DNA from: Rickettsiales bacterium
GTDB lineage: Bacteria; Pseudomonadota; Alphaproteobacteria; Rs-D84
Assembly (NCBI GenBank): GCA_031283185.1
Contig: JAITCH010000009.1
Location: 65,190 to 129,189 of the forward strand
Length of the DNA stretch: 64,000 bases
Reading direction: 5' to 3'
The notes beneath the pieces were generated by a model. The model did no database searches. It worked only from the letters and a program-made list of their open reading frames with translations, and had not been told where the DNA came from. Each line of letters starts with the position of its first letter. Positions within the stretch are counted from its first letter, which is position 1. The position numbers and the translations under genes are program-made. Shown piece after piece: positions 2,247-62,977 of this stretch.

Positions 2247-2402
2247 CAAAAAACATTAGGGGTGTCGCAACGGCTTGATAGGCCGTCCAATACCAAGGAA
2301 ACCCGACCTGCGGTGTATTGTATATACATAAAGTGTTGGGTTTCCGAAGTGTAGTGGGCGGAAATATCAAGTCGGGATGAAAAACACCCCTTATGTTTTT
2401 TG
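2247..2402. ncRNA. Long-hairpin element, subtype G copy 1 (putative structured RNA / terminator-based element)
   Basis: CAAAAAACAT...ATGTTTTTTG and GGGGTG...CACCCC outer helix; TCGCAACGGC...GATGAAAAA loop motifs; homologous to 48992..49146. Confidence 0.6.
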
Positions 2403-17196: not shown

Positions 17197-17997
17197 ATGA
17201 TCCATTCAACCGCTATCGTTCACAAAAACGCCATCATCGGTCAAGATGTCGAAATCGGCGCATACTGCATAATCGGCGACCAAGTTAAACTCGGCGACCG
17301 CGTCATCCTTAAATCCCATGTCGTAGTCGAAGGTCCCACCGAAATCGGCGAGGACACAATCATCTATCCCTTCGCCGCCATCGGCACAAAAGGGCAAGAC
17401 CTGAAATTCCAAGAAGACGACCAAATGTCCGGCGTCAAAATCGGCAAGCGCAATCGCATCCGCGAATATGCCACCATTCAACAAGGAACCCCCGCATCAA
17501 AGGGCACAATCGTTGGCGATGACTGCCAGATTATGATCAACGCCCATGTCGCCCACGACTGCATCCTTGGCAACAACATCATCCTTTCCAATGTCGTGCA
17601 ACTCGCCGGTCATGTGGAAGTCGAAGACTTTGCAATCGTATCCGGGATGGCCGCCGTCCACCAATTCTGCCGCATCGGAAAATACGCGATTGTCGGCGGC
17701 GTCAGCGGAGTCGCAAACGATGTTCTGCCTTATAGTATCTCGGACGGACGGCCTGCGATTTACAAGACCCTGAACCGCGTGGGACTTTCGCGCCACGGAA
17801 TCGGCAACGATGATATGCACGCAATTTATGAAGTCTACAAAGCGTTGTTCGACAAGTCTGATATTACAAGTTCAGTTGCAAGCCGATTGAAAGAAATTCG
17901 GAAAAAGGTAAAGGATAGTCCGTATGCAATGGACGCGCTTGATTTTATAGAGAATCGGTCGAAGCGCGGCGCAACCGATTTTTCTAAACGCGAATGA
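17197..17997 (+). CDS. lpxA: UDP-N-acetylglucosamine acyltransferase
   Basis: Hexapeptide repeats; VVEGPTEIGEDTIIYPFAAIGTKGQDLKF; HVAHDC. Confidence 0.95.
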   Translation: MIHSTAIVHKNAIIGQDVEIGAYCIIGDQVKLGDRVILKSHVVVEGPTEIGEDTIIYPFAAIGTKGQDLKFQEDDQMSGVKIGKRNRIREYATIQQGTPASKGTIVGDDCQIMINAHVAHDCILGNNIILSNVVQLAGHVEVEDFAIVSGMAAVHQFCRIGKYAIVGGVSGVANDVLPYSISDGRPAIYKTLNRVGLSRHGIGNDDMHAIYEVYKALFDKSDITSSVASRLKEIRKKVKDSPYAMDALDFIENRSKRGATDFSKRE

Positions 17998-19094
17998 ACA
18001 ACAAAATCAAAATTTTCATAATGGCTGGTGAAGCATCTGGCGATGTGCTTGGCGCGTCAGTTATGCGTAGTTTCGGCAATCAAGCAGAATTCCGCGGCAT
18101 CGGCGGAATGAATATGACTTCGGCGGGACTTAAATCAATTTTCCCAATGGCCGATTTGTCCGTTATGGGATTGTCCGCAGTTATCGCAAGAATTTGGACA
18201 TTGCTCCGCCGTATTCGGCAAGCCGCAGACGCAATTAAAAAATGGAATCCCGATGTCGTGCTGTCCATAGATTCGCCCGGCTTTGCCAAGGCAGTCGCAA
18301 AAAAAATCGGCAAGGGCAATGGCGCGAAACTTTATCATTTTGTTGCGCCGCAGGTATGGGCTTGGCGTGCCGGACGCGCGAAAAAATTTGCGAAACTATT
18401 TGATCGGCTTTATTGCTTTTTTGATTTCGAAGTTCCGTATTTTACAAAGTTCGGTTTGCCGACAATTCCAGTCGGTCATCCTATTGCGGACGGAGAAATC
18501 AGAAACTTCATTGGTCGGAAACGCGACAATAAAATGATCGCGCTTTTGCCCGGTTCGCGCCCGGCAGAAGTCGCAGCGCATATGCCGTTATTGGGCGCGG
18601 TTGCGGAAAATTTTCCAGGATATAAAATTATGGTTCCTGTCGCCGACCCAGTTCGGGCACAAGTTGTAGCGGCTGCGAAATCATGGAATGCAAAGCCGAT
18701 TTTCGCCGCCAGTCAAAACCGATATTCTGTTTTCGCCGATGCCGCATTGGCAGTGGTGGCAAGCGGAACGGCAAGCGCGGAACTGGCGGTGCTTCATACC
18801 CCGGCAGTGGTGGTTTATAAGACGAGCGCGCTGACATATTGGGGATTTCGTCTGGTATCAAAAATCAAATTTGTTTCATTGGTGAATATAATAATGGGGC
18901 GGAAAATTTATCCTGAATTTTTACAGCATAACGCGACTGCAAATAATGTTATTATGTCCGCGCATAAAATTTTGGATGATGATGCTGTGCGCGAAAAGAT
19001 GATTTCAGAATTAGAATCGGCGGATAAAATTTGGTCGCTGGGCGGCCTTCCCGCAAGCGACATCCTCCGCGATGATTTAATAAAATCTTTATAG
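17994..19094 (+). CDS. lpxB: lipid-A-disaccharide synthase
   Basis: MAGEASGDVLGASVM; HFVAPQVWAW; PVGHPIAD; LLPGSRPAEV. Confidence 0.96.
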   Translation: MNNKIKIFIMAGEASGDVLGASVMRSFGNQAEFRGIGGMNMTSAGLKSIFPMADLSVMGLSAVIARIWTLLRRIRQAADAIKKWNPDVVLSIDSPGFAKAVAKKIGKGNGAKLYHFVAPQVWAWRAGRAKKFAKLFDRLYCFFDFEVPYFTKFGLPTIPVGHPIADGEIRNFIGRKRDNKMIALLPGSRPAEVAAHMPLLGAVAENFPGYKIMVPVADPVRAQVVAAAKSWNAKPIFAASQNRYSVFADAALAVVASGTASAELAVLHTPAVVVYKTSALTYWGFRLVSKIKFVSLVNIIMGRKIYPEFLQHNATANNVIMSAHKILDDDAVREKMISELESADKIWSLGGLPASDILRDDLIKSL

Positions 19095-43089: not shown

Positions 43090-43465
43090 TAAATAATTCC
43101 CCTCTCATGTGGAGGGGTGTCGCGCCGTAGCGAAGCGTAGGCGGACGGGGTGGTTGGTGCTTGATAATCGCACAAAATTCCCCTTCGCTTGATGTAGTCG
43201 CACAAAAGTCCCCTTCGCTGGCGAAGGGGTGGCACGAAGTGCCGGGGTAGTGGTAATAAAAAATAAATAAGTCATTGCCCGGCTTGACCGGGCAATCCCG
43301 GCCGCCGGGGTGGTTGGTGCTTGATAATCGCACAAAATTCCCCTTCGCTGGCGAAGGGGTGGACTGCGAAGCAGGACGGGGTAGTGGTCATAAGTCATCC
43401 CGGGGCTTGACCCCGGGATCTCGCCTTAGCGGGGTGGGGTCTCCGAACCCCACCCCGAACATTTT
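43090..43465. repeat. intergenic hairpin-repeat mosaic
   Basis: B, partial A, A, C, partial B, A, C, D elements in ~370 bp. Confidence 0.9.
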
Positions 43466-44317: not shown

Positions 44318-44670
44318 CAGCGGGGTGGGGTCTTCCGACCCCACCCCGAACATTTTCTAATCGTCATCCCCGCGGCTTGTCGCGCCGTAGCGAAGCGTAG
44401 GCGGACGGGGTGGTTAGTGCTTGATAATCGCACAAAAGTCCTCTTCGCTTGATGTAGTCGCACAAAATTCCCCTTCGCTGGCGAAGGGGTGGACGGCGTA
44501 GCCGGACGGGGTAGTGGTAAAAAATTCCCCACCACCGAAACGGCACTTTCAGTGCCGTCATCCCCGCGAAGGCGGGGATCTCAAATTGTATAATGCAAAT
44601 AAATTCCCCGCCAAGGGTGGCGGGGTGTCGCGCCGTAGCAAAGCGTAGGCGGACGGGGTGGTTAGACCCC
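44318..44670. repeat. intergenic hairpin-repeat mosaic
   Basis: D, C with nested core, linker, A, C, B. Confidence 0.9.
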
Positions 44671-44757: not shown

Positions 44758-47700
44758 ATGTATTTAAGAAAAATCGGCTTATTTCTTGCCGCGATAATTA
44801 TGGCGATACCGGCGCATTCGGCGCAGACCTCGTTTCAGCAGGCGTCGCAGTTGCTATTGGCTGCGCGTCAAGGCAACGGGGCAGAGGTTCAGCGTCTGAT
44901 AGCGATGGGTGTGGATGTAAATTACCGCGATCCGTCCGGGATGAGTTTGGCTTGCACAGCGATAATGAATAACGATCGCGGCACGGCGCAGTTGTTGCAA
45001 AGTTTCGGTGCGGACGCATCGCGTTGCGATCAAGAGATTCGGAATTTCAGACGCGCTAATATAGAGCCTTCTCAGTCGGGGATATTTTCAGGGCTCAGCA
45101 GCACGCAAAGTATGGTTCTTGCGGCGGGCGGCGCGGCGTTGGGTGTTGGCGCATTGGGCTATTTGGCGGGACTTTATACGGATGGGAATAATAATCCGCT
45201 TCCGAACGAAAGCACTAATCGCCCGGGCCAGGGCGGCGGTGGCGGGACTACGCCCGGCGAAACGATAACGATTCCGAATGCGCCGAATAATTGCACTAAT
45301 TGCGCGGGCGATTGGGCAACGGCGCAGATAGCGGCATCGAATCCGGCGACCGCGGCCGGAAATTTTGCAAGGATGTCGGCCAGTGGCGCGCTTATAAATG
45401 CGGGCTTGGCTGCGAATCCACAGGTGGATTTAAGAAGTAATGACGCGTGGTGGCGGAACGGCCGGCAGAATTATTTATTGTTGAATAGTTATTATGATGC
45501 GAACGCGCGGGGATATTTCGGACAGAAGATCTTGCGTGTTGACGCCACTCGAAATCCTGTGGCATCAAGTCATTTCACGACTCAGATACCTGACACATTT
45601 GGCGGCCAGGTTGTGAATGCGGGCGCGCCGGTCAGCATTGCGCTGATAACGAATAGCGGAATAACGCGCAGCGGCAATTTAATGGACGAAACGATTTCCG
45701 GCGATGGCGATACTATGGCGGACATTGTTTATGCGAAGGTTAACGGCAATGGTGGAACGGCGACACCGACTCTTGAAGCCGCTGCTGCGAACAGGTATTG
45801 GAATTTGATTGTTAATCGGATGACTGGCGGCTTTGATAACGGCACTTCATCTGAAAGGCCTGGGTTTAATTTTGCATTAACGGCGTCGTTCGGGGATTTT
45901 TTAATGAAGTATGCTGGCGCAAATCCCAGCACTTGCACGGCAAGTGGTTGGACGGCGGGGAATTGCCCTGGGGTTTCATCGGCTAATTATACTGCGGCGT
46001 TGACGGCGTATCAGCAGGCGGCGTCAGTGTTTAATCAACGCAAGACTTTGGATTATTTCGCAGGCATAAATGATGCGGGCGCGACGGGTCAGGCATTGGC
46101 GAATTTCCAATGGAAATGGTATAGCAATTCTGCGAATCAAACTGATTTCATTAATCTTTTTTCTATTAACGGCACTCCGCCGACTGGCGCGTGCAGTCTG
46201 ACTGCCGTGCAATCCGGCACAAATTGCAATGGTATGGATGCGACAAGTTTTTTAATCGCGCAAAAGGCGTGGACATTATATAATGGCGGGACGATTGATG
46301 GCGATATATTGGCGGGCTTGACTTGGTGGCTGGGTGAAATTGGAATATCGAATCCGGCGGCATCTGCGGCGGTTATATTTGGATTGTATCAGAATCAAGA
46401 AAGTTTTTATGATGATTCATTGCTGGCGAAAATTTTAATCGGCAGATACGGACAGAATGACGATTGGCAGGGCGGCTATGTTCCGAATGCCCAGTTGATG
46501 GTTGTTAAAACTGGTAATGGCAAGGGTGTTGATGTAGACGGGAACGAAGTAGATATTGATTATACTAATTTCCGTGCGTTGCTTGCGGCCTTTGATACGG
46601 CGTCTAACCCTGGCACTAATACCAGCACATCGTTCAAGCCGACTATTTTGGCGAATGCGGCGTTGCCGACATTTTCCAAATTGACTGATACTGCGACTGC
46701 GGATGGCCTGCGCGGATTGATAATAAATAATCAGAATCAAACGGAACGCGAAAATGCATTTGGTAATGCCATAAATAAATATTATAACCAAGAAGACAAT
46801 GTTCGCACGCCGGGATTTGATGCGTTGACGCTTTTCAATAGGTATAATACTAATAATGATGCTACGCCTATGCTTATATTTGGCGCGGGTGATTATTCTG
46901 CGGGTCTTGGTCTGGGGCAGATTCAGACAGCGACATTTGAAAATCTGGCTCCGTGGATTTGGGCTGGATTAAAGCATTCGTTTATGACGGCGGTTGCGGT
47001 GCAGGCGGTGGACGGGACAAGCGGAATTGCATTGTCGGGGCTTGCTTCATATGATGCAGATTCGGCATTAAAAATTAGGTTATCGCAGTATTATGATCAG
47101 GACGGAGATTTATATCGTTCACGCGCTTGCGGTGTGGTTGCGGGCTTGGGCGTAGCGGGCGGGATTGATCCGTGGTGTTTTGCATCGCCGGGATTAACAT
47201 CGGAACAAGCGGTTGCAAGTTTGGCTGGAAATGTTGGACTGCTTTCGTCAGCGTTTAGTTATATGACTATGCGGCAGATATTCACGCTTATTGCTGTTTC
47301 ATCGGATAGATTGGCGATGACTGCGGCTGATTTGAAGGACAAATATGAATTGCCCGGTGAATATCAGTCAATGGTTGATGCGGGAATGGATTATAAAACC
47401 GTATTTGCCCAAGTGTTCGGCTATGGATTGGCGAATCTGCAACGCGCGACATTGCCCGGGTCCAAGGTTCATATATTAACGACTAATGGCAATATATTTT
47501 CAACAACCAACTCTGGTAATAATTCCAATACGGCGAGTTGGACTGCGCGCGCGGCGACATTGGGATTGCACCTGACCTCAGTCGGTTCTAATTTCATACA
47601 AAGCACGGGGTGGACGCCAAGTTTTGCATTCGGGACGCAACTTCACGGGATAAACGCGCCGATGTTTGATATATTGGAATCCGAAGACGGCACTATGTCC

Positions 47701-48729
47701 ATCCCGCGCATTTGGCATCAATCCGCGGATTTTGTAGCGATGCGTTCGTCCTTGGACCTGCTCGACAATTTCCAACAATTCGCAACTGACAGCCCGACTA
47801 TATACGACCACGAAGGTGTGAAAATTGGATTGTCGCAGGGATTGGATTACGAGAATAAATCATTTGTCCGCGATGCAACGCTTAACCTAGATAGCGATAA
47901 TTCGTTCGCCGATTTCAGTTATAAGAAATCATCCGCGAACCACAGGGACGGAGTTTTGGGGCTTGCTTCGGACACGACAAAAATGGGCGCGGGATTAAAA
48001 TCGGACGGCTTTTCATTTGGGGTAAGTGGATTTAACGGCACGATAAAAATCTCGGATGCATTGCTTGACCAAAGCAACGCGGATACCAAACAGAACCTTG
48101 GAAGAATCTATGGCGCACAACTGAATGCCGGATATAAAACTGAAACATTGCAGGCGACATTATCTGCCGGTTCTGCGATTGAATCAGATACGATACTCGG
48201 CGCATATGGGTCGGGATTGTTGGAACTCGGCGGCAGCAATTCAATCTTCGCCCGGTTTGATTTTAATAAGTCATTGCCCGACTTGATCGGGCAATCTCGG
48301 CCGCTTAAAATTTCCATATCATCCGAAGTCGCCCGCACCACTCCAAACAAGACGCAGAATTATGTCATAAATAATATGTCGGAATTTATTTCGACGGCGG
48401 CATCGGCGAAATTGGATTGGGGAAATTTGTCCGTTGGGGTAGCCTTGCCGCTTGCAGTGGTTCACGGAACAATGGATTATTTAGATGTGCAAATGTGGAC
48501 GGACGAAACGGAGGACGGGTATAAGTTAATGGTAGATGCCAGCCTTCATAATATCAATATGGCTAATTCTGAGCGCGAAGTTCGTCTGAATGCAGAGTAT
48601 AAATTGGAATTGGGAGAATTTACAACTGCGAACCTCGGCGCGATTTATCGCATTAATCCCAATAACACTGCCCAGTTCGGCAACGAGTCTATATTAATGC
48701 TCAAACTCTCCCATAAATTGGGAATATAA
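44758..48729 (+). CDS. autotransporter-like protein: ankyrin-like N-terminus, subtilase-like passenger, C-terminal beta barrel
   Basis: Signal peptide; LLLAARQGNGAEVQRLIAMGVDVNYRDPSGMSLACTAI ankyrin-like; VPNAQLMVVK and SLAGNVGLLSSAFSYMTMRQIFTLI resemble subtilase; barrel-like C-term. Confidence 0.7.
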   Translation: MYLRKIGLFLAAIIMAIPAHSAQTSFQQASQLLLAARQGNGAEVQRLIAMGVDVNYRDPSGMSLACTAIMNNDRGTAQLLQSFGADASRCDQEIRNFRRANIEPSQSGIFSGLSSTQSMVLAAGGAALGVGALGYLAGLYTDGNNNPLPNESTNRPGQGGGGGTTPGETITIPNAPNNCTNCAGDWATAQIAASNPATAAGNFARMSASGALINAGLAANPQVDLRSNDAWWRNGRQNYLLLNSYYDANARGYFGQKILRVDATRNPVASSHFTTQIPDTFGGQVVNAGAPVSIALITNSGITRSGNLMDETISGDGDTMADIVYAKVNGNGGTATPTLEAAAANRYWNLIVNRMTGGFDNGTSSERPGFNFALTASFGDFLMKYAGANPSTCTASGWTAGNCPGVSSANYTAALTAYQQAASVFNQRKTLDYFAGINDAGATGQALANFQWKWYSNSANQTDFINLFSINGTPPTGACSLTAVQSGTNCNGMDATSFLIAQKAWTLYNGGTIDGDILAGLTWWLGEIGISNPAASAAVIFGLYQNQESFYDDSLLAKILIGRYGQNDDWQGGYVPNAQLMVVKTGNGKGVDVDGNEVDIDYTNFRALLAAFDTASNPGTNTSTSFKPTILANAALPTFSKLTDTATADGLRGLIINNQNQTERENAFGNAINKYYNQEDNVRTPGFDALTLFNRYNTNNDATPMLIFGAGDYSAGLGLGQIQTATFENLAPWIWAGLKHSFMTAVAVQAVDGTSGIALSGLASYDADSALKIRLSQYYDQDGDLYRSRACGVVAGLGVAGGIDPWCFASPGLTSEQAVASLAGNVGLLSSAFSYMTMRQIFTLIAVSSDRLAMTAADLKDKYELPGEYQSMVDAGMDYKTVFAQVFGYGLANLQRATLPGSKVHILTTNGNIFSTTNSGNNSNTASWTARAATLGLHLTSVGSNFIQSTGWTPSFAFGTQLHGINAPMFDILESEDGTMSIPRIWHQSADFVAMRSSLDLLDNFQQFATDSPTIYDHEGVKIGLSQGLDYENKSFVRDATLNLDSDNSFADFSYKKSSANHRDGVLGLASDTTKMGAGLKSDGFSFGVSGFNGTIKISDALLDQSNADTKQNLGRIYGAQLNAGYKTETLQATLSAGSAIESDTILGAYGSGLLELGGSNSIFARFDFNKSLPDLIGQSRPLKISISSEVARTTPNKTQNYVINNMSEFISTAASAKLDWGNLSVGVALPLAVVHGTMDYLDVQMWTDETEDGYKLMVDASLHNINMANSEREVRLNAEYKLELGEFTTANLGAIYRINPNNTAQFGNESILMLKLSHKLGI
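48265..48303. repeat. type C hairpin repeat inside autotransporter CDS
   Basis: aataagtcattgcccgacttgatcgggcaatctcggcc -> NKSLPDLIGQSRP in frame. Confidence 0.92.
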
Positions 48730-48991: not shown

Positions 48992-49146
48992 CAAAAAATC
49001 CAACTTTGTCGCAACGGCGCGTCAGGCCGTCCAATACCAAGGAAACCCGACCTGCGGTGTATTGTATATACATAAAGTGTCGGGTTTCAGAAGTGTAGTG
49101 GACGGAAATGACGCGGCGGGATGAAAAACAAAGTTAGGATTTTTTG
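48992..49146. ncRNA. Long-hairpin element, subtype G copy 2
   Basis: CAAAAAATCC/GGATTTTTTG + AACTTTG/CAAAGTT outer helix; CGCGTCA/TGACGCG inner helix covaries with copy at 2247..2402. Confidence 0.65.
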
Positions 49147-49153
49147 TCCTTAT

Positions 49154-50896
49154 TTAACCCACCACCGCTTTTATGCGCCGCACCCCCGCCGCACTACTCT
49201 CTTCTTTTAATATCTTAAACCGCCCCAACTCAGCAGTATTCCCCGCGTGCGGCCCTCCGCAAATTTCTTTGGAAAATCCGCCCATAGTATAGACCTTAAC
49301 GACTTCGCCGTATTTCGCCTCGAACAAACCGATTGCTCCACCGGCCTTGGCATCCGCGACCGACATTTCTTCCATAATGATTTCAGCCCCGGCGGCGATG
49401 GCCTCATTGACTTTCGCCTCCACAAGCGCGATTTCGTCATCAGTCATCTTGCGATCGAACGAGAAATCAAATCTCAATCGTTCAGCTGTAATGTTTGATC
49501 CGCGTTGTGCAACGCCGTCCCCCAAAACCGCCCGCAAAGCAGAATGCAGCAAGTGTGTTGCAGTATGAAGTTTGGTGGTTTCATCGGAATGGTCGGCGAG
49601 ACCACTCTTAAAGACTTGCGATGTGCGCGACCGCTCTTTTTGTTCTGCCATTGCGGCATCAAATCCCGGCAGGTCGACGCCGATTCCGCGCTCGCGCAAA
49701 ATCTGTTCCGTCAGATCAAGCGGAAATCCATATGTGTCGTATAGTTTGAAAGCCGCCGCGCCCGGCAGGGTTTTCGCACCGCCAAGTCCCGCGACTTCTT
49801 TTTCCAGCAATTTCAATCCGCTGGTTAACATATCTTCAAACGCATCTTCTTCACGGCGGATTGTTTCGATGACGCGCGCTTGTTCACGCGCCAATTCGGG
49901 ATATGCGTCGCCCATCTCCGAAACCAACGCCGGGTAAAGCGCACTCAGCAACGCGCCCTTGTGCCCCAATACTTGACCTTGACGCATAGCGCGGCGCAGT
50001 ATGCGGCGGATGACATAGCCGCGTTCGGTGTTGGAAGGCTGAATGCCATCGGCGATTGCGAAACCGACCGCGCGAAGATGGTCGGAAATAATTTTGAACG
50101 CCGGGGTGTTCGCAGCCGTCTGTTGAACGCCGACTAAATCGGCCGTGGCATTTTTCAAAGCAACGAACAGGTCGGTATCATAGTTATCGTGCACACCTTG
50201 AAGCATTGCCGCCCATCGTTCCAGCCCGCCGCCGGTATCGACATTTTGCTTTGGCAAATCGGTTAATGCGCCATCAGTCCCGCGATCAAATTGCATAAAT
50301 ACATTGTTCCAAATTTCGATGAAGCGTCCATCATCTTCGGTCGGAGTGCCGGGAAGTCCGCCCGGAACATCATCTCCGTGGTCATAAAAAATTTCAGTGC
50401 AAGGACCGCAAGGGCCGGTATCGCCCATCGCCCACCAGTTGGGCTTGTCCAGACGGATTGCGTCTTTGCCGGTGATGCGTTTCCAAATTGCAGCGGCCTC
50501 GTCGTCGGAATCGTGAACTGTTACGACTAACTTTGCCGGGTCAATGTTCATTTCGCGGGTCAGCAAGTTCCAAGATAATTCAATCGCGCCTTCTTTGAAG
50601 TAATCGCCGAAAGACCAGTTGCCTAACATCTCAAAGAAAGTGTGGTGGCGGGAGTCAAAGCCAACATCTTCCAGGTCGTTGTGTTTTCCACCAGCCCTCA
50701 GACACTTTTGGGAATCGGCCACACGGGGCGCGGGCGCATCTTGAATACCTTGTAGAACTTTTTTGAATGGCACTACGCCTGCAACCGTGAACAGCAGCGA
50801 GTTATCGTCTGGCACGAGGGAGGCCGAGGGAACGATTTTATGTCCATTTTTTTCCATATAGTCCAAGAATAATTTTCTAATTTCATTAAATTTCAT
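49154..50896 (-). CDS. alaS: alanyl-tRNA synthetase, minimal form (580 aa)
   Basis: MKFNEIRKLFLDYMEKNGHKIVPSASLVPDDNSLLFTVAGVVPFKK; HTATHLLHSALR; CGGPHAGNTAELG; ends right after editing core. Confidence 0.93.
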   Translation of the reverse strand: MKFNEIRKLFLDYMEKNGHKIVPSASLVPDDNSLLFTVAGVVPFKKVLQGIQDAPAPRVADSQKCLRAGGKHNDLEDVGFDSRHHTFFEMLGNWSFGDYFKEGAIELSWNLLTREMNIDPAKLVVTVHDSDDEAAAIWKRITGKDAIRLDKPNWWAMGDTGPCGPCTEIFYDHGDDVPGGLPGTPTEDDGRFIEIWNNVFMQFDRGTDGALTDLPKQNVDTGGGLERWAAMLQGVHDNYDTDLFVALKNATADLVGVQQTAANTPAFKIISDHLRAVGFAIADGIQPSNTERGYVIRRILRRAMRQGQVLGHKGALLSALYPALVSEMGDAYPELAREQARVIETIRREEDAFEDMLTSGLKLLEKEVAGLGGAKTLPGAAAFKLYDTYGFPLDLTEQILRERGIGVDLPGFDAAMAEQKERSRTSQVFKSGLADHSDETTKLHTATHLLHSALRAVLGDGVAQRGSNITAERLRFDFSFDRKMTDDEIALVEAKVNEAIAAGAEIIMEEMSVADAKAGGAIGLFEAKYGEVVKVYTMGGFSKEICGGPHAGNTAELGRFKILKEESSAAGVRRIKAVVG

Positions 50897-51144: not shown

Positions 51145-52104
51145 ATGGCGAAGACGACTTATATTATTACTGGACCCACGGCGAGCGGCAAAAGCGATTT
51201 TGCTCACGAACTTGCATTGCGTGCTAATGGCACGATTATCAATGCGGACTCGGTTCAGATATATCGCGGCCTAGAAACTCTATCTGCCTCCCCTCTAAAA
51301 AATTCCCCCTCAATAGATAACATTCCATATAAACTTTATTCCATAATTCGCCCACCTGAAAAAATGTCAGCGGGAAGATATGCAGAGTTGGCGCACGCCG
51401 AAGCGGCACAGGCGGACACACCAATTTTCGTTGGCGGCACGGGGTTTTATTTGTCGGCGTTAACGGATGGCTTTTCAGATTTGCCTGATGTGTCTCGCCA
51501 GTCGCAATTAATCGCCGAAGGCTTTGCGAACAAACACGCGGAATTGCAAAAATGCGATCCGGTGTTGGCGGCGAAATTGCATCCGAATGACACACAACGC
51601 CTGACCCGCGCGCTTTCTATATTCATTGAAACCGGCCAACCCCTATCTTCATTTCAACAATTCCCCGCCAAGGGTGGCGGGGTGTCCGGCTCCGCCGGAC
51701 GGGGTGGTTCGCTAATAAAAATCGCCATCCTTCCTCCACGCGCAGAACTATTAAAACGCGCTGCCGCCCGCCGCGAAACGATGTTGGCGAACGGCGCATT
51801 AGACGAAGTCAAAATGAACATATCATTTGATATAAAGGCGATTGGCTTCCGCGAGATTCGGTCATATTTGCGCGATGAAATCAGCCGGGACGAGATGTTG
51901 CGCTTATGGTCGATTGCCGATGCACAATATATAAAGAGACAATTCACCTGGCTCCGCAATAAGTTCTTGGCTCAAAAGTCCCCTTCGCTGGCGAAGGGGT
52001 GGACTGCGAAGCAGGACGGGGTAGTGGTTAATAATAATTCAAATCAAATAATCATTGATCACATACCAACATCAAAGGACATAGAAGATGTTCTCAGAAA
52101 ATGA
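51145..52104 (+). CDS. miaA: tRNA dimethylallyltransferase with two in-frame repeat insertions
   Basis: YIITGPTASGKSDFAHELA; NADSVQIYRGL; FVGGTGFYLSAL; inserts QFPAKGGGVSGSAGRGGS and AQKSPSLAKGWTAKQDGVVVN. Confidence 0.93.
   Translation: MAKTTYIITGPTASGKSDFAHELALRANGTIINADSVQIYRGLETLSASPLKNSPSIDNIPYKLYSIIRPPEKMSAGRYAELAHAEAAQADTPIFVGGTGFYLSALTDGFSDLPDVSRQSQLIAEGFANKHAELQKCDPVLAAKLHPNDTQRLTRALSIFIETGQPLSSFQQFPAKGGGVSGSAGRGGSLIKIAILPPRAELLKRAAARRETMLANGALDEVKMNISFDIKAIGFREIRSYLRDEISRDEMLRLWSIADAQYIKRQFTWLRNKFLAQKSPSLAKGWTAKQDGVVVNNNSNQIIIDHIPTSKDIEDVLRK
51660..51712. repeat. type B hairpin repeat inside miaA
   Basis: ttccccgccaagggtggcggggtgtccggctccgccggacggggtggtt. Confidence 0.92.
51971..52035. 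repeat. type A hairpin repeat inside miaA
   Basis: ctcaaaagtccccttcgctggcgaaggggtggactgcgaagcaggacggggtagtggttaataa. Confidence 0.92.
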
Positions 52105-54223
52105 TGTTGTCCGTGTTCTGCTGCCCCTGCCCCACACCGACGGCTTTGACTATTCAATTAAATTCCCCGGCCCCCTTATCCCCGGCGCCTTCGTCAATGT
52201 TCCATTTATGAACAAAACGATGACTGGGGTTGTAATGGGTCGTGGCTCTGCAAGCCTAGCGCCGGAAAAAATCAAACCGATTTCGGAAATTCTAAATATC
52301 GCGCCGCTCACACCCGCTGACATTGATTGGATTCAAAGGATGAGCGATTGGACAATGATGACGCAGGGTGCTGTGTTGCGCCTGATAATGAATGTAGAGT
52401 TCCGGGAAGAAAAAAGAAAATCGAAACCGCTTGCGATTCCGACATATAAAGACACGCAGAAAATCGTGCTAACTCCGGATCAAAAGACGGCGGCGGAACA
52501 GATCCAAGCGACCGATAAATTCAAGGTTCATTTACTGGACGGCGTAACGGGGTCTGGCAAGACGCAGGTATATTTTGATATGGCGATGCGATTTTACGAG
52601 GCTGGCAAGAATGTTTTGATTATGATGCCGGAGATTGCGCTAACGCAGCAGTTCATAAAGAAGTTCGAGAATAAGTTTGGTGCAGAGCCGCTTGTCTGGC
52701 ATTCCAATTTAACTCCATCCACCCGCCGCAAAATCTGGCGGCTAATAAACCAATCTCACTTCACGGATACGCGCTCAAAATTCCCCTTCGCTGGCGAAGG
52801 GGTGGACTGCGAAGCAGGACGGGGTAGTGGTAATAAAAAACAACTCCCCCCTTGCGGGGGAGTCGAAAAATCGCAAAACGATTTTTCGGTGGGGGGTATC
52901 GCAAACACCACGCAACCCTTGATATTAATAGGCACCCGTTCTGCCCTCTTCCTGCCGTGGAAAAATCTCGGGCTGATCATCATAGACGAAGAGCACGACT
53001 CGTCGTATAAGCAAGACGAAATGGGCAGTTATCACGCGCGCGACATGGCATTGCTGCGGGCGAAATTGCTGAATATCCCGGTGTGTTTGGCGAGTGCGAC
53101 GCCGTCGGTTGAAACGCTTCGGAATGTATCAAGCGGCAAATATTCTGTGTCTATTTTGCCTTCGCGCTTTGGCGGCGCGCAACTCCCCACCATCGAAATC
53201 ATCGATCTAAAAAATAACAAGTCATCCCCCGACTTGATCGGGGGATCTCGGCCGAATTTATCTCTCCCCTTAATCCAAGAAATCCAAAAAACCCTCACCG
53301 CGAAACAACAGACGATGTTATTTCTAAACCGCCGCGGATTTTCACCGGCGATATTGTGCGAAGAATGTGGACATACGCTGACCTGCCCGGATTGTTCAGT
53401 GGGGATGACATACCATCGGCGCATTGGAAAAATGTTGTGTCATTATTGCGGCCGAAGACAACCGATACCAAACATCTGCCCGGAATGCAAAAAGGGCGAA
53501 ATGAAAATGCAGGGCGCGGGGGTAGAAAAGATAGAGGCGGAACTCCGCGCAGTATTTCCGACCGCGCGAATTGAAATTTTATCATCGGATACATCGGGCG
53601 ACCTTGCGGGAATTATAGAGCGCATAGAGAAGCACGAAACGGACATAATTATTGGGACGCAGATCTTGGCCAAGGGGCACCATTTTCCGAACATAACATT
53701 GGTGGGTGTGGTGGATGCGGACGCCGGACTTTTTGGAAATGATTTTCGCGCGGCGGAAAAAACCTTTCAGCAGTTGTTCCAAGTATCTGGACGCGCGGGA
53801 CGGGGCTTGGCACCTGGACGGGTGATGTTGCAAACATATAATCCGACGCATCCAGTGCTGCTTGCGTTGCGGGATAATAAGCGGGAAGACATTATAAATG
53901 CGGAGTTAAAGAATCGGGAGGCTGCCAAGATGCCGCCATTTGGGCAGTTGATTGCGGTTATTGTTGAAAGCGACCGCGAGGATAAGTTAGAAAAATTCTG
54001 TGCAGAACTTCGTGCGACTGCACCGAACATCATTGGTGCGAAGATTGCAGGCCCTGTGCCAGCGGAAATGTATCAAATAAGGAATTGGTATAGGATGAGG
54101 TTTCTTGTGCACGGCGGCGAGCGCGATTTGTTGCAGCCGATAATAAGGAAATGGATTGGATCAGTTAAGTGCCCATCGAATACGCGCATTAAACTCGACC
54201 CGAACCCCCAAACTTTTCTCTAA
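52088..54223 (+). CDS. priA: primosomal protein N' (PriA helicase) with in-frame repeat insertions
   Basis: LLDGVTGSGKTQVYFD; IIIDEEHDSSYKQDE; Cys-rich zinc region CEECGHTLTCPDC; ends ...RIKLDPNPQTFL. Confidence 0.95.
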   Translation: MFSENDVVRVLLPLPHTDGFDYSIKFPGPLIPGAFVNVPFMNKTMTGVVMGRGSASLAPEKIKPISEILNIAPLTPADIDWIQRMSDWTMMTQGAVLRLIMNVEFREEKRKSKPLAIPTYKDTQKIVLTPDQKTAAEQIQATDKFKVHLLDGVTGSGKTQVYFDMAMRFYEAGKNVLIMMPEIALTQQFIKKFENKFGAEPLVWHSNLTPSTRRKIWRLINQSHFTDTRSKFPFAGEGVDCEAGRGSGNKKQLPPCGGVEKSQNDFSVGGIANTTQPLILIGTRSALFLPWKNLGLIIIDEEHDSSYKQDEMGSYHARDMALLRAKLLNIPVCLASATPSVETLRNVSSGKYSVSILPSRFGGAQLPTIEIIDLKNNKSSPDLIGGSRPNLSLPLIQEIQKTLTAKQQTMLFLNRRGFSPAILCEECGHTLTCPDCSVGMTYHRRIGKMLCHYCGRRQPIPNICPECKKGEMKMQGAGVEKIEAELRAVFPTARIEILSSDTSGDLAGIIERIEKHETDIIIGTQILAKGHHFPNITLVGVVDADAGLFGNDFRAAEKTFQQLFQVSGRAGRGLAPGRVMLQTYNPTHPVLLALRDNKREDIINAELKNREAAKMPPFGQLIAVIVESDREDKLEKFCAELRATAPNIIGAKIAGPVPAEMYQIRNWYRMRFLVHGGERDLLQPIIRKWIGSVKCPSNTRIKLDPNPQTFL
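52774..52900. repeat. type A repeat plus second palindromic element inside priA
   Basis: aaaattccccttcgctggcgaaggggtggactgcgaagcaggacggggtagtggtaataa followed by ctccccccttgcgggggagtcgaaaaatcgcaaaacgatttttcggtggggggt. Confidence 0.9.
53218..53255. repeat. type C hairpin repeat inside priA
   Basis: caagtcatcccccgacttgatcgggggatctcggcc -> NKSSPDLIGGSRP. Confidence 0.92.
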
Positions 54224-54319: not shown

Positions 54320-54322
54320 TCT

Positions 54323-54474
54323 CAAAAAATCCGGCGGCATCGCAACGCCGAGGATAGAATGTCGAGTAGTGGTGAAAAAACGACGACGGAGTATGTATGG
54401 ATACTTCTAGGAGTTTTTTCGCCGCTAATCGGCATTATAGACCGGCGGCTGAAAAATGCCGCTAGGATTTTTTG
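54323..54474. ncRNA. Long-hairpin element, subtype H copy 1
   Basis: CAAAAAATCC/GGATTTTTTG; GCGGCA/TGCCGC; GGTGAAAAAAC/GTTTTTTCGCC; nearly identical to 59255..59406. Confidence 0.65.
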
Positions 54475-54482
54475 TCCTTATA

Positions 54483-54923
54483 TTACCCAATCAAAGCATA
54501 AATACGATTGGTCGCTTCCGACGCATCTGCTTTCGCACCGAATACTTTATCAAAGTTATCGTGCATCAGTGTTGCGAATTTATCCGCGTCCATTCCAACG
54601 ATTGCGGCGGCGGCGATCATTGATTCACCTTTTGTGCCGGCTGCGGCTTCCATTGCGAATGATTCATAATTGCCGTGGACATATGCGAAAAGTTCACGCC
54701 GATCGATACGCGCATTTTGTTTGCAGCCGAGGGTTCCTGTGGACATACCGAATGCCTGGTTCAGGAAGATGCCGTTGGTGAAAGACGCGCCGAGGTCAAA
54801 TATCAACCCGCGCTGTCCAGAGAAGATTACGGAACCGAGACCGCATCCTGGATTATCTGCGCGCGCGACGCTGATGGAACCTGCGACGATTGCTGCTGCG
54901 ATTATAATTTTATTTGCTTTCAT
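54483..54923 (-). CDS. DUF3015 family exported protein
   Basis: Signal peptide; NPGCGLGSVIFSGQRGL...TNGIFLNQAFGMSTGTLGC signature. Confidence 0.8.
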   Translation of the reverse strand: MKANKIIIAAAIVAGSISVARADNPGCGLGSVIFSGQRGLIFDLGASFTNGIFLNQAFGMSTGTLGCKQNARIDRRELFAYVHGNYESFAMEAAAGTKGESMIAAAAIVGMDADKFATLMHDNFDKVFGAKADASEATNRIYALIG

Positions 54924-57136: not shown

Positions 57137-57352
57137 ATGTCTTTATTCTCGAAAAAACCGGCCGCGAAGAAAGTTGCAGTAAAGAAAGTTGCTGCAAAGA
57201 AACCGGCTGCGAAGAAAGTTGCAGTAAAGAAAGTTGCAGCGAAGAAACCAGCGGCGAAGAAAGTCGCGGTGAAAAAAGTTGCGGCGAAGAAAGTTGCTGT
57301 AAAGAAACCGGCTGTCAAAAAGGCGGTTAAGAAAGTTGCGAAGAAGAAATAA
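57137..57352 (+). CDS. histone H1-like Lys/Ala-repeat protein
   Basis: (KKPAAKKVAVKKVAA)n; RBS aaaaaggagaaagaga. Confidence 0.8.
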   Translation: MSLFSKKPAAKKVAVKKVAAKKPAAKKVAVKKVAAKKPAAKKVAVKKVAAKKVAVKKPAVKKAVKKVAKKK

Positions 57353-59254: not shown

Positions 59255-59406
59255 CAAGAAATCCGGCGGCATCGCAACGCCGAGGATAGAATGTCGAGTA
59301 GTGGTGAAAAAACGACGACGGAGTATGTGTGGATACTTCTAGGAGTTTTTTCGCCGCTAATCGGCATTATAGACCGGCGGCTGAAAAATGCCGCTAGGAT
59401 TTCTTG
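59255..59406. ncRNA. Long-hairpin element, subtype H copy 2
   Basis: CAAGAAATCC/GGATTTCTTG: compensatory A-T to G-C change vs copy 54323..54474; remainder nearly identical. Confidence 0.65.
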
Positions 59407-60734: not shown

Positions 60735-61259
60735 ATGACACAACTTGAACTCTGTAATCTTGCGCTGTTGAAACTGGGCGAGCAGCCCCTAGCGAATATG
60801 AATGAAGAATCTGCGCCGGCAAAACTTGCGCGCGCGATTTTTCCATCACTCAGGAATGGCTTACTCTGCCTTTATCCGTGGAACTTTGCGATTCAAGAAT
60901 TTGATTTGGTTCGAACATCCGGCGAATTTATTTTACCAAATGGTGTGTTGCGCGTGCTTGAAGTTTCTTCGGACAATTATAAAATCAACGGCCGAAAAAT
61001 AGTCTGTAATGCAGAACGATTAACGCTCAGGGCGATAATTGATCCGGGCGAAAACGCTTGCCCTGATTGGTTTTGCACATTGCTTGCGTCCAGACTTGCG
61101 TGTGAAATTTGTTTGCCGTTGACGGATAATCAGGCGATGCTGAAAAGCCTGGCGGAGCAATTTGAAACAGAGTTCAAGAATGCCAAGTTTATGGATAGCG
61201 CGAGCGCAAAGAATCCATCAGGCGTCAAAACATTTTCATTAATAGATCAAAGGTTTTAA
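60735..61259 (+). CDS. tail tubular protein A-like
   Basis: MTQLELCNLALLKLGEQPLANMNEESAPAKLARAIFPSLRNGLLCLYPWNFA typical of gp11-like proteins. Confidence 0.8.
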   Translation: MTQLELCNLALLKLGEQPLANMNEESAPAKLARAIFPSLRNGLLCLYPWNFAIQEFDLVRTSGEFILPNGVLRVLEVSSDNYKINGRKIVCNAERLTLRAIIDPGENACPDWFCTLLASRLACEICLPLTDNQAMLKSLAEQFETEFKNAKFMDSASAKNPSGVKTFSLIDQRF

Positions 61260-62977
61260 TGATGGCATCACTAAAATTTATTCAGACGAATTGCAATTTT
61301 TCATTAGGGTGGAGCGCGCCTGAATTTGCGATGCGCGGCGATATGAAGACTGCATCGGCATCGGTATCGCGCCTTGAAAATATGGATGTGCTGCCGTCGG
61401 GCGGCTTGGCGCGGCGCGCGGGGACACGGCAGATTTATAATACGCCGATCGCGGAGGATGCTGTGCTGGTTCCGTTTCATCTTGGCGTTGGGGAAGAGTA
61501 TTTACTGATATTGGGTGGAGGGCGACTTCGGATGTTTCTGAACGGGGCTGTTCAGCAAACGATTACTACTCCGTGGGCGGATACGGATTTAAAGAATATA
61601 CAATGGGCGCAAAGGGATCGCGCGATGATATTCACGCATCCTAATTTTCCTCCGCAAATTTTATCGCGGAAATCGTCGTGGAATTTATTGTCCATAGATT
61701 TCAGTTATCCGATTGTGAATGATATGACTCACATTCCGTTTTATAAATTTGATGGGGCGAACAATCCGTTCAGTGTAGCGGTCACAAGTTCTGGCGGAAC
61801 GCGGACGGCGCAGTTGACGGCGATCAAGGCGAATTGGACCGAGGGTCATGTTGGTGCCAAGATGCGGTTTGGCGGGATGGAGTGGTGGATTACGAGTTTT
61901 GTAAGTGCGACTTGTGTGAATGTTGCGACGAACAATGCTACGATTCCTGCGCCGACCACGCAGGTGACGAATTGGTCGGAAAGCGTGTGGAGCAACGCCT
62001 ATGGTTATCCGCGCGCGGTTTCCATTTTTCAGAACAGGCTGGTGTTTGCTGGGACGAGGACTCTGCCGAATTTTGTATGGATGTCCAAGACGGGCGAGGT
62101 TTATGATTTTGAAGCCGGGACTGGTCTGGATAATGATGCGATTGTGGCGTCGCTTCCCGCGCCTGCGCTTCATACGATTTCATCGGTTATATCGGCGGAA
62201 AACTTAGAGATTCTGACTGATATGGGCGAATGGAGCATCAAGGGCTCACCTGTTACGCCATCATCTTTCACGACCCGGAAACATACGAATATAGGGTCGA
62301 AGTTGGATAGATTTTTACCGCCGCAAAGGGTGGACGGCGCGACAATTTTCATGTCGAAAACCGGATGCGAATTGCGAGAGTTAAAGTTGGATAATCTGAG
62401 TGATACTTATAGTGCAGTTGACCTTGCGTCGTTGTCGCAGCATCTGATGAATGATCCGATTTCGATGACATATTCTCCGACTGAAAAACGATTGCTGATT
62501 GTTATGGCGGACGGAACGATTTCGGCATTGACCAAGGATGATAATTTGGAAGTGCTCGGCTGGTCGCAGTATAAAACTGATGGCGAGTTTAGATATGTTG
62601 TGATGTCTAATGATCGAATATATGCGGTTGTTAATCGGAATGGCGCGGCGAAGTTGGAAATGTTTGATCAATCGGTTTGGACGGACGGGCTTGCGAATTT
62701 TGCATTTGTTCATCGGGTGGAATCGTGGCCGATATTTTCTGACGGGACGCCTGCGCGATCGTTAAGGATAACGAAGATGCAGATGCGATTTATTGATACG
62801 ACAGCATTTACGATTCGTGTCGGACATAGCGAGCCTGAGATGATTTCATTAACGGACGCAGAGGTAGAAATAAATTCACTTGGCACGATAAAGAATTCCG
62901 AATCGGTGTGGGAGTTAAGCGGCACGACGCCCCTGACATTAATTTCCCTAACGCTTTCCGGCCGCCTCACAATATAG
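61259..62977 (+). CDS. tail tubular protein B-like
   Basis: SASVSRLENMDVLPSGGLARRAGTRQI; QNRLVFAGTRTLPNFVWMSKTGEVYDF. Confidence 0.8.
   Translation: MMASLKFIQTNCNFSLGWSAPEFAMRGDMKTASASVSRLENMDVLPSGGLARRAGTRQIYNTPIAEDAVLVPFHLGVGEEYLLILGGGRLRMFLNGAVQQTITTPWADTDLKNIQWAQRDRAMIFTHPNFPPQILSRKSSWNLLSIDFSYPIVNDMTHIPFYKFDGANNPFSVAVTSSGGTRTAQLTAIKANWTEGHVGAKMRFGGMEWWITSFVSATCVNVATNNATIPAPTTQVTNWSESVWSNAYGYPRAVSIFQNRLVFAGTRTLPNFVWMSKTGEVYDFEAGTGLDNDAIVASLPAPALHTISSVISAENLEILTDMGEWSIKGSPVTPSSFTTRKHTNIGSKLDRFLPPQRVDGATIFMSKTGCELRELKLDNLSDTYSAVDLASLSQHLMNDPISMTYSPTEKRLLIVMADGTISALTKDDNLEVLGWSQYKTDGEFRYVVMSNDRIYAVVNRNGAAKLEMFDQSVWTDGLANFAFVHRVESWPIFSDGTPARSLRITKMQMRFIDTTAFTIRVGHSEPEMISLTDAEVEINSLGTIKNSESVWELSGTTPLTLISLTLSGRLTI

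What the first reader, a model, noticed from the sequence alone, without database searches (positions are those of the whole stretch)
48992..49146. Covarying long-hairpin element (subtype G): candidate undescribed structured RNA
Copies at 2247..2402 and 48992..49146 share sequence (GGCCGTCCAATACCAAGGAAACCCGACCTGCGGTGTATTGTATATACATAAAGTGT...) but differ in helices in a compensatory way. The inner helix is CTTGATA/TATCAAG in copy 1 and CGCGTCA/TGACGCG in copy 2, with 4 of 7 pairs changed on both sides. The outer helix is CAAAAAACAT..GGGGTG/CACCCC..ATGTTTTTTG versus CAAAAAATCC AACTTTG/CAAAGTT..GGATTTTTTG. The helix AAACCCGAC/GTYGGGTTT shows a G-U/G-C swap, and CCGTCC/GGRCGG likewise. Internal-loop motifs TCGCAACGG and GGGATGAAAAA are unchanged. 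Variable helices with invariant loops are a hallmark of selected structure.
Basis: seen in the sequence. Interest (0 to 1): 0.9.

Follow-up and report, generated by a model that had tools for sequence, protein, structure and literature searches.

The report
Strand-locked, covarying mobile DNA hairpin family

Summary
Both hairpins are at the stated coordinates (fold z -8.3 and -10.0). The window holds two further members, and the genome about 68. All three other species of the genus that were searched carry it (60, 41 and 30 copies); 21 genomes of other genera in the family and 16 of other families do not. In 68 rows from those species, 92% of paired positions stay paired and 44 of 49 pairs have double-sided changes. 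No Rfam family matches, HEARO included.

The interpretation "structured RNA" is only partly supported. Near-identical copies (98-99%) sit in unrelated flanks, with edges at the hairpin foot and no target-site duplication. Of 128 copies, 19 carry a 5'-arm remnant of an older copy just upstream, none downstream. Orientation is locked within each contig (66 of 68 in this genome) whatever the gene direction, and the genome's other hairpin repeats are locked too (5845:20). At 65 of 111 sites the 3' edge lies within 15 nt of the stop codon of an opposite-strand gene, so that gene's transcript would carry the weaker-folding antisense.

Best reading: a new mobile hairpin, propagated as a folded single DNA strand coupled to replication and working like REP/REPIN or IS200/IS605 elements, but lacking their defining foot, partner gene and symmetry. 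The enzyme and the fork polarity are unresolved.

The parts
48992..49146 (+). The element of the finding, a 155-nt hairpin between the convergent genes 44758-48729 (+) and alaS 49154-50896 (-)
   Evidence: 167 bits; neighbour identified as alaS
48992..49008 (+). Outer helix, 5' arm (CAAAAAATCCAACTTTG); sequence differs between copies
   Evidence: sequence; 13 of 15 outer pairs change on both sides in other species
49129..49146 (+). Outer helix, 3' arm (CAAAGTTAGGATTTTTTG)
   Evidence: as above
49009..49016 (+). Conserved 5' internal-loop motif TCGCAACG; the first TC is invariant in A1
49118..49128 (+). Conserved 3' internal-loop motif GGGATGAAAAA; the GAAA part is invariant in A1
49018..49024 (+). 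Inner helix 5' arm CGCGTCA, pairs with 49109-49115
   Evidence: sequence
49109..49115 (+). Inner helix 3' arm TGACGCG
   Evidence: sequence
49147..49152 (+). 3' flank TCCTTA, next to the 3' end of alaS on the other strand. The flank motif TC[CA]TT recurs at most copies, and its TTA is often the stop codon (TAA) of the opposite-strand gene
2247..2402 (+).
   Evidence: 169 bits
54322..54474 (+). Third copy, between priA 52088-54223 (+) and the gene ending near 54483 (-). The same junction holds a same-strand copy in two other species (L108:5183-5334, L116:14076-14229)
59255..59406 (+). Fourth copy, 97.4% identical to the third with unrelated flanks

Best explanation
A genus-specific, non-coding, ~155-nt mobile DNA element that works as a folded single strand. 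One strand of each copy folds into a long hairpin with at least three conserved asymmetric internal loops, which act as the recognition signature. Stem sequence is free to drift as long as both arms change together. New copies are made from this folded strand, most likely when it is exposed at replication forks, and are pasted in one fixed orientation relative to the fork, often over the 3' part of an older copy. Shown here: the covarying structure, near-identical copies at different loci with sharp edges, no target duplication, the orientation lock, older-copy 5' arms left upstream, and a preference for 3' edges abutting the stop codon of an opposite-strand gene. Inferred: the single-stranded intermediate, the coupling to replication, and the copying agent, which is either a Y1/HUH single-strand transposase acting in trans or transposase-free template switching between exposed hairpins.
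For: Mobility: L128:1181 and L035:1073 are 99.4% identical over the element with unrelated flanks; in G001, L142:11316/L147:2137 are 99.3% and L108:18164/L109:14222 98.1% identical, again with edges at CAAAAA..TTTTTG. No target-site duplication (k=3: 24 observed, 23.9 reshuffled; k>=6: none). Orientation lock: 66 of 68 copies in this genome agree within their contig, as do the listed copies on multi-copy contigs of the three relatives; the other hairpin repeats of the genome are locked the same way, 5845:20 on 129 kb and 380:0, 804:0 and 758:1 on three other contigs. Nesting: 19 of 128 copies have a 23-52 nt same-orientation remnant starting at the 5' end of an older copy directly upstream, 0 downstream, 0 in shuffled flanks. 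Folded strand: sense folds better than antisense in 112 of 128 copies, Wilcoxon p 6e-18; G.T exceeds A.C 132:68 after removal of repeats. IS200/IS605 Y1 transposases insert into and excise from the lagging-strand template (PMC6006769), and compensatory stem changes are common in REPINs (PMC3116915).
Against: No copying enzyme is tied to the family. The one REP-type tyrosine transposase in this genome is flanked by a different hairpin family, and none was found in the three other species that carry the element, although those genomes are 86-92% complete. The polarity relative to the fork is contradictory: third-position GC skew in this genome, G002 and part of G003, plus this genome's 16S and L2 genes, say leading strand; rpoB is opposite to the elements in 3 of 3 genomes and skew is reversed in G001. 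G.T does not exceed A.C in the outer helix of the relatives (11:19). No closely related strain was available to show an empty site, and gene conversion between resident copies could also yield near-identical pairs.
Confidence: 0.52

Rival explanations
1. The elements are bidirectional transcription terminators or 3'-UTR RNA structures of the genes they follow; structure is kept because the RNA hairpin, with A- and T-tracts at its foot, ends transcription.
For: In 78 of 111 resolved copies the gene on the 3' side is on the opposite strand, and in 65 of these its stop codon ends within 15 nt of the element. Junctions with an element are convergent in 20 of 59 cases against 19 of 142 without. The foot carries A6/T6 tracts. 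The priA junction holds a copy in three species with wholly different stems.
Against: Genes on the other strand hardly ever have a reversed copy behind them (2 reversed copies of 68 in this genome), which a pure terminator would not require. The gene transcripts at those 65 sites would contain the weaker-folding antisense. A terminator needs no ~60-bp stem with several conserved internal loops. Enrichment between convergent genes is also expected of parasitic repeats (PMC3049150).
Confidence: 0.22
2. The compensatory changes come from template-switch correction of quasi-palindromes during replication, which makes hairpin arms match without selection for structure; the family is a neutral repeat.
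For: In this genome other repeat families also contain variable perfect hairpins inside a fixed frame (for example GGGGTG[variable hairpin]GGGGTAGTGG). Older 5' arms left upstream fit polymerase switching within a hairpin.
Against: The asymmetric internal loops are conserved across four species instead of being made symmetric. G.T pairs persist, and more than A.C.
Confidence: 0.13
3. A polar chromosome signal, like KOPS: hairpins that mark replication direction for a segregation or replication protein.
For: Near-absolute orientation per contig in four genomes; roughly one copy per 12-27 kb; conserved loops suggest protein recognition.
Against: Many unrelated hairpin families in this genome show the same lock, which points to a shared insertion mechanism. 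The family is absent from sister genera. Copy positions are mostly not shared between species.
Confidence: 0.08
4. HEARO/IscB omega-RNA or another known Rfam RNA.
For: Length and an ATGA near the 3' side recalled HEARO (memory, a lead only).
Against: No Rfam family reaches gathering score at an element in the window or in the relatives scanned. The permissive scans list only scores far below cut-off and no HEARO.
Confidence: 0.01

Closest known systems
REPIN / REP elements with REP-associated tyrosine transposase (RAYT)
   Same: Short non-coding intergenic hairpins in many copies, predicted to move as folded single strands; compensatory stem changes are reported in REPINs (PMC3116915). A RAYT gene exists in this genome (NF047646, 80.0 bits against a cut-off of 80).
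   Different: No GT[AG]G at the hairpin foot (0 of 128). ~155 nt with conserved internal loops instead of two inverted conserved REPs. Present in three species without a detected RAYT. One orientation per contig.
IS200/IS605 family and their derivatives
   Same: Orientation lock, no target duplication and hairpin recognition recall single-strand transposition on the lagging-strand template (PMC6006769).
   Different: No transposase or TnpB inside the element; one continuous hairpin; no fixed target tetranucleotide established.
Pneumococcal SPRITE / BOX repeats
   Same: Terminator-like or tightly folded interspersed repeats enriched between convergent genes and thought to be non-autonomous mobile elements (PMC3049150).
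   Different: Different sequence and structure; no strand lock or stem covariation of this extent was seen in the passages read.
MITEs moved by DDE transposases
   Same: Small, folded, non-autonomous, multi-copy.
   Different: No target-site duplication; stem sequence not conserved; orientation locked.

Membership tests
REP/REPIN (RAYT-mobilised) | GT[AG]G tetranucleotide 0-2 nt 5' of the hairpin foot | tested here: not met
   0 of 128 copies, even within 6 nt; definition from PMC6006769
REP/REPIN (RAYT-mobilised) | Cognate RAYT gene in the genome, flanked by the repeats | tested here: not met
   One RAYT in this genome, flanked by a different hairpin family; none found in G001-G003, which carry the element
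REP/REPIN (RAYT-mobilised) | Hairpin with compensatory stem changes | tested here: met
IS200/IS605-type single-strand mobile element | Orientation bias tied to the replication strand | tested here: inconclusive
   Orientation lock per contig is certain; leading/lagging assignment conflicts
IS200/IS605-type single-strand mobile element | No target-site duplication | tested here: met
IS200/IS605-type single-strand mobile element | Y1 transposase acting on the element | not testable with these tools
   No transposase could be linked; a biochemical cleavage assay is needed
MITE (DDE) | Target-site duplication | tested here: not met
   Observed equals reshuffled for k=3; none for k>=6
Rfam structured RNA (HEARO and others) | Covariance-model score above the gathering threshold | tested here: not met
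   permissive scans
Structured non-coding RNA gene | Covarying conserved secondary structure | tested here: met
Structured non-coding RNA gene | Transcription of the sense strand as a discrete RNA | not testable with these tools
   No expression data available

The most novel reading that the evidence does not exclude
A transposase-independent genetic parasite whose heritable identity is its folded shape. Copies spread by replication-fork template switching between exposed single-strand hairpins, overwriting the 3' part of older copies and leaving their 5' arms behind, so that dozens of same-shaped but differently spelled copies build up on one strand of the chromosome.
Probability: 0.18. Interest if true: 0.85.

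Novelty: new variant of a known kind. Interest (0 to 1): 0.62.

Why it matters
In two of the three relatives hardly any 13-mer of the stretches read reaches five copies, apart from a CRISPR-like array, yet they hold 41 and 60 copies recognisable by structure. Sequence-based repeat finders would largely miss such a family. The near-absolute orientation lock, shared by unrelated hairpin families in the same genome, gives a natural record of strand-specific insertion and makes the coupling of small hairpin repeats to replication directly testable. It also warns that strong covariation among genomic copies does not by itself mean a functional RNA.

Tried and rejected
HEARO/IscB and every other Rfam family: no match. 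Y1 transposase as the obvious mobiliser: single copy in this genome, absent from the three relatives, flanked by another hairpin family. Presence outside the genus: a pattern scan of GTDB genomes returned 44 singletons in unrelated taxa, but the covariance model found no credible member in them, so they are chance; a viral-contig scan gave one 17-mer hit that the model does not confirm. DDE-type MITE: no target duplication. Extension of the hairpin into the flanks: pairing equals reshuffled flanks. Fixing leading or lagging strand by GC skew, 16S, L2 and rpoB: the indicators disagree. A resemblance of TCGCAACG..CGGGATG to a loop of 4.5S RNA was noted from memory and not pursued, since no SRP family was hit.

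Full report
What is in the sequence. Each folds into one long hairpin, far more stable than shuffled sequence (z -10.0 and -8.3). The window contains two more members, 54322-54474 and 59255-59406, with more divergent inner stems.

Family size and range. A covariance model built from 33 copies of this genome finds about 68 copies in the 0.93-Mb assembly, 60, 41 and 30 copies in the three other species of the same genus that are held (G002, G001, G003), and none in 21 genomes of other genera in the family or 16 of other families in the order. A pattern scan of GTDB genomes gave only chance hits. The host is a reduced-genome alphaproteobacterium: its 16S rRNA is closest, at 81%, to alphaproteobacterial sequences on plasmids and chromids, and a sister species carries an alpha-type tmRNA.

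Covariation. Within the genome, 37 of 49 predicted pairs show compensatory double changes. The stronger test uses matches from the other three species, which were not used to derive the structure: 92.3% of cells paired, 44 of 49 pairs with double-sided changes, 655 such cells against 174.8 in shuffles, and collapse to 38-46% pairing when partners are slid. The alignment was fitted to the model, and four of the 68 rows are antisense self-matches, so the figures lean slightly; the contrast with slid partners is nevertheless very large. The internal loops are conserved: TCGC opposite GAAAA, GAGGATAGA opposite TATAGAC, and CCAATACCAAGGAA opposite TTCCGAAGTGTAGTGG. No Rfam family matches.

It moves. 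Pairs of copies that are 99.4% (this genome), 99.3% and 98.1% (G001) identical over the whole element sit in unrelated surroundings, and identity stops at the hairpin foot CAAAAA..TTTTTG. Gene conversion between resident copies could also produce such pairs, so this is strong but not final evidence of insertion. There is no target-site duplication. Short flank motifs, AATAANCT before and TC[CA]TT after, recur in all species.

It is overwritten by its own kind. Nineteen of 128 copies have, directly upstream and in the same orientation, a 23-52 nt remnant that begins at the 5' end of another element; none has such a remnant of comparable score downstream, and shuffled flanks give none. A few copies carry a short right-arm remnant downstream (for example L017:5425 onward). 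New copies thus appear to replace the middle and 3' part of old ones.

It is strand-locked. Within contigs of up to 195 kb nearly every copy points the same way: 66 of 68 in this genome, and all listed copies on multi-copy contigs of the relatives. The many other hairpin repeats of this genome obey the same rule: on 129 kb of the window's contig, repeated 13-mers occur 5845 times on one strand and 20 on the other, and three further contigs give 380:0, 804:0 and 758:1. Genes lie on both strands, so gene direction does not explain the lock. Which strand this is relative to the fork could not be settled: GC skew, 16S and L2 suggest leading, rpoB suggests the opposite, and G001 has reversed skew.

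Where it sits. Of 111 copies with both neighbours called, 78 have on their 3' side a gene on the opposite strand, and in 65 of these the stop codon ends within 15 nt; the TTA of the flank TCCTTA is that stop codon in many cases. On the 5' side only 7 of 55 same-strand genes end that close. Genes were called by a simple codon-usage script, so individual boundaries may be off. At the priA junction three species have a same-strand copy with entirely different stems; next to alaS this genome and G001 do, while G002 and G003 do not. Other junctions differ between species, so there is both retention or re-use of sites and turnover.

Which strand folds. The sense strand folds better than the antisense in 112 of 128 copies (p 6e-18), and G.T pairs outnumber A.C 132:68 after removal of repeats (32:14 in the first set). 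This is concentrated in the inner helices; in the outer helix of the relatives it is 11:19. For most copies the abutting gene would transcribe the antisense, so the asymmetry argues against a 3'-UTR or terminator role as the main cause and fits a folded DNA strand. It does not exclude an independent sense transcript.

Reading. The combination of single-orientation spread, no target duplication, hairpin recognition and preserved shape is what single-strand transposition would give; IS200/IS605 transposases act on the lagging-strand template (PMC6006769), and REPINs show compensatory stem changes (PMC3116915). The family is not a REP/REPIN by definition: no GT[AG]G foot and no RAYT in three of four carriers. 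The single RAYT of this genome is flanked by a different hairpin family. The copying agent is therefore open: an unseen enzyme, a RAYT lost in the relatives, or template switching. Terminator function, neutral palindrome correction and a polar chromosome signal are kept as rivals with the odds given.

Verdict. The "structured RNA" label is only partly supported. It is a new family, best filed as a new variant of the hairpin-type mobile repeat, with the orientation lock as its most striking property.

Noticed in passing
window 1-64000 and the rest of contig C5 (L112-L115): About 20 families of interspersed hairpin repeats (for example GGGGTAGTGGT 49:0, GTCGCGCCGTAGC 57:0, GTCATnCC..CTTGA..ATC 38:0 on + against - over 129 kb) all lie on one strand, whatever the gene direction.
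   Followed up: partly
window, e.g. 43323-43393, 44453-44523, 52766-52836: Repeats with a fixed frame CCCCTTCGCTGGCGAAGGGGTG[...]GGGGTAGTGG hold a short hairpin of varying sequence, another case of matched stem change.
   Followed up: no
L038:1423-1920 (this genome, contig C7): A single REP-associated tyrosine transposase gene (NF047646, at the cut-off) flanked by the GGGTGGGGGTCTCC..GAACATTTTATCA hairpin family that is also in the window (about 38660, 43425, 48732, 62997): a likely REPtron.
   Followed up: partly
L118, about 17300-18300 (G003), and G002 contig C9: A CRISPR-like array with a 36-nt repeat, GTTATAGGTTGCTTTCCAAATCAGACCTGGTATAAT, directly downstream of priA in G003; the same repeat words occur in G002 C9.
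   Followed up: no
window 57137-57346: 15-nt tandem repeats coding a lysine/alanine-rich stretch (KKVA/KKPA units), like histone-H1-type tails.
   Followed up: no
window 44758-48729 and 61259-62977: Large ORFs (1323 and 572 aa) with no NCBIfam or Pfam match.
   Followed up: no
window 49154-50896: Alanyl-tRNA synthetase of only 580 aa, matching the short PRK01584 form.
   Followed up: no
L024:1, L025:1, L029:1, L030:1, L036 end (contig ends of this genome): Several contigs end inside copies of the element, so the assembly breaks at it and the copy count is a lower bound.
   Followed up: no
G001 contigs C3, C4, C8, C1: Third-position GC skew is reversed relative to element orientation, unlike in this genome.
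   Followed up: partly
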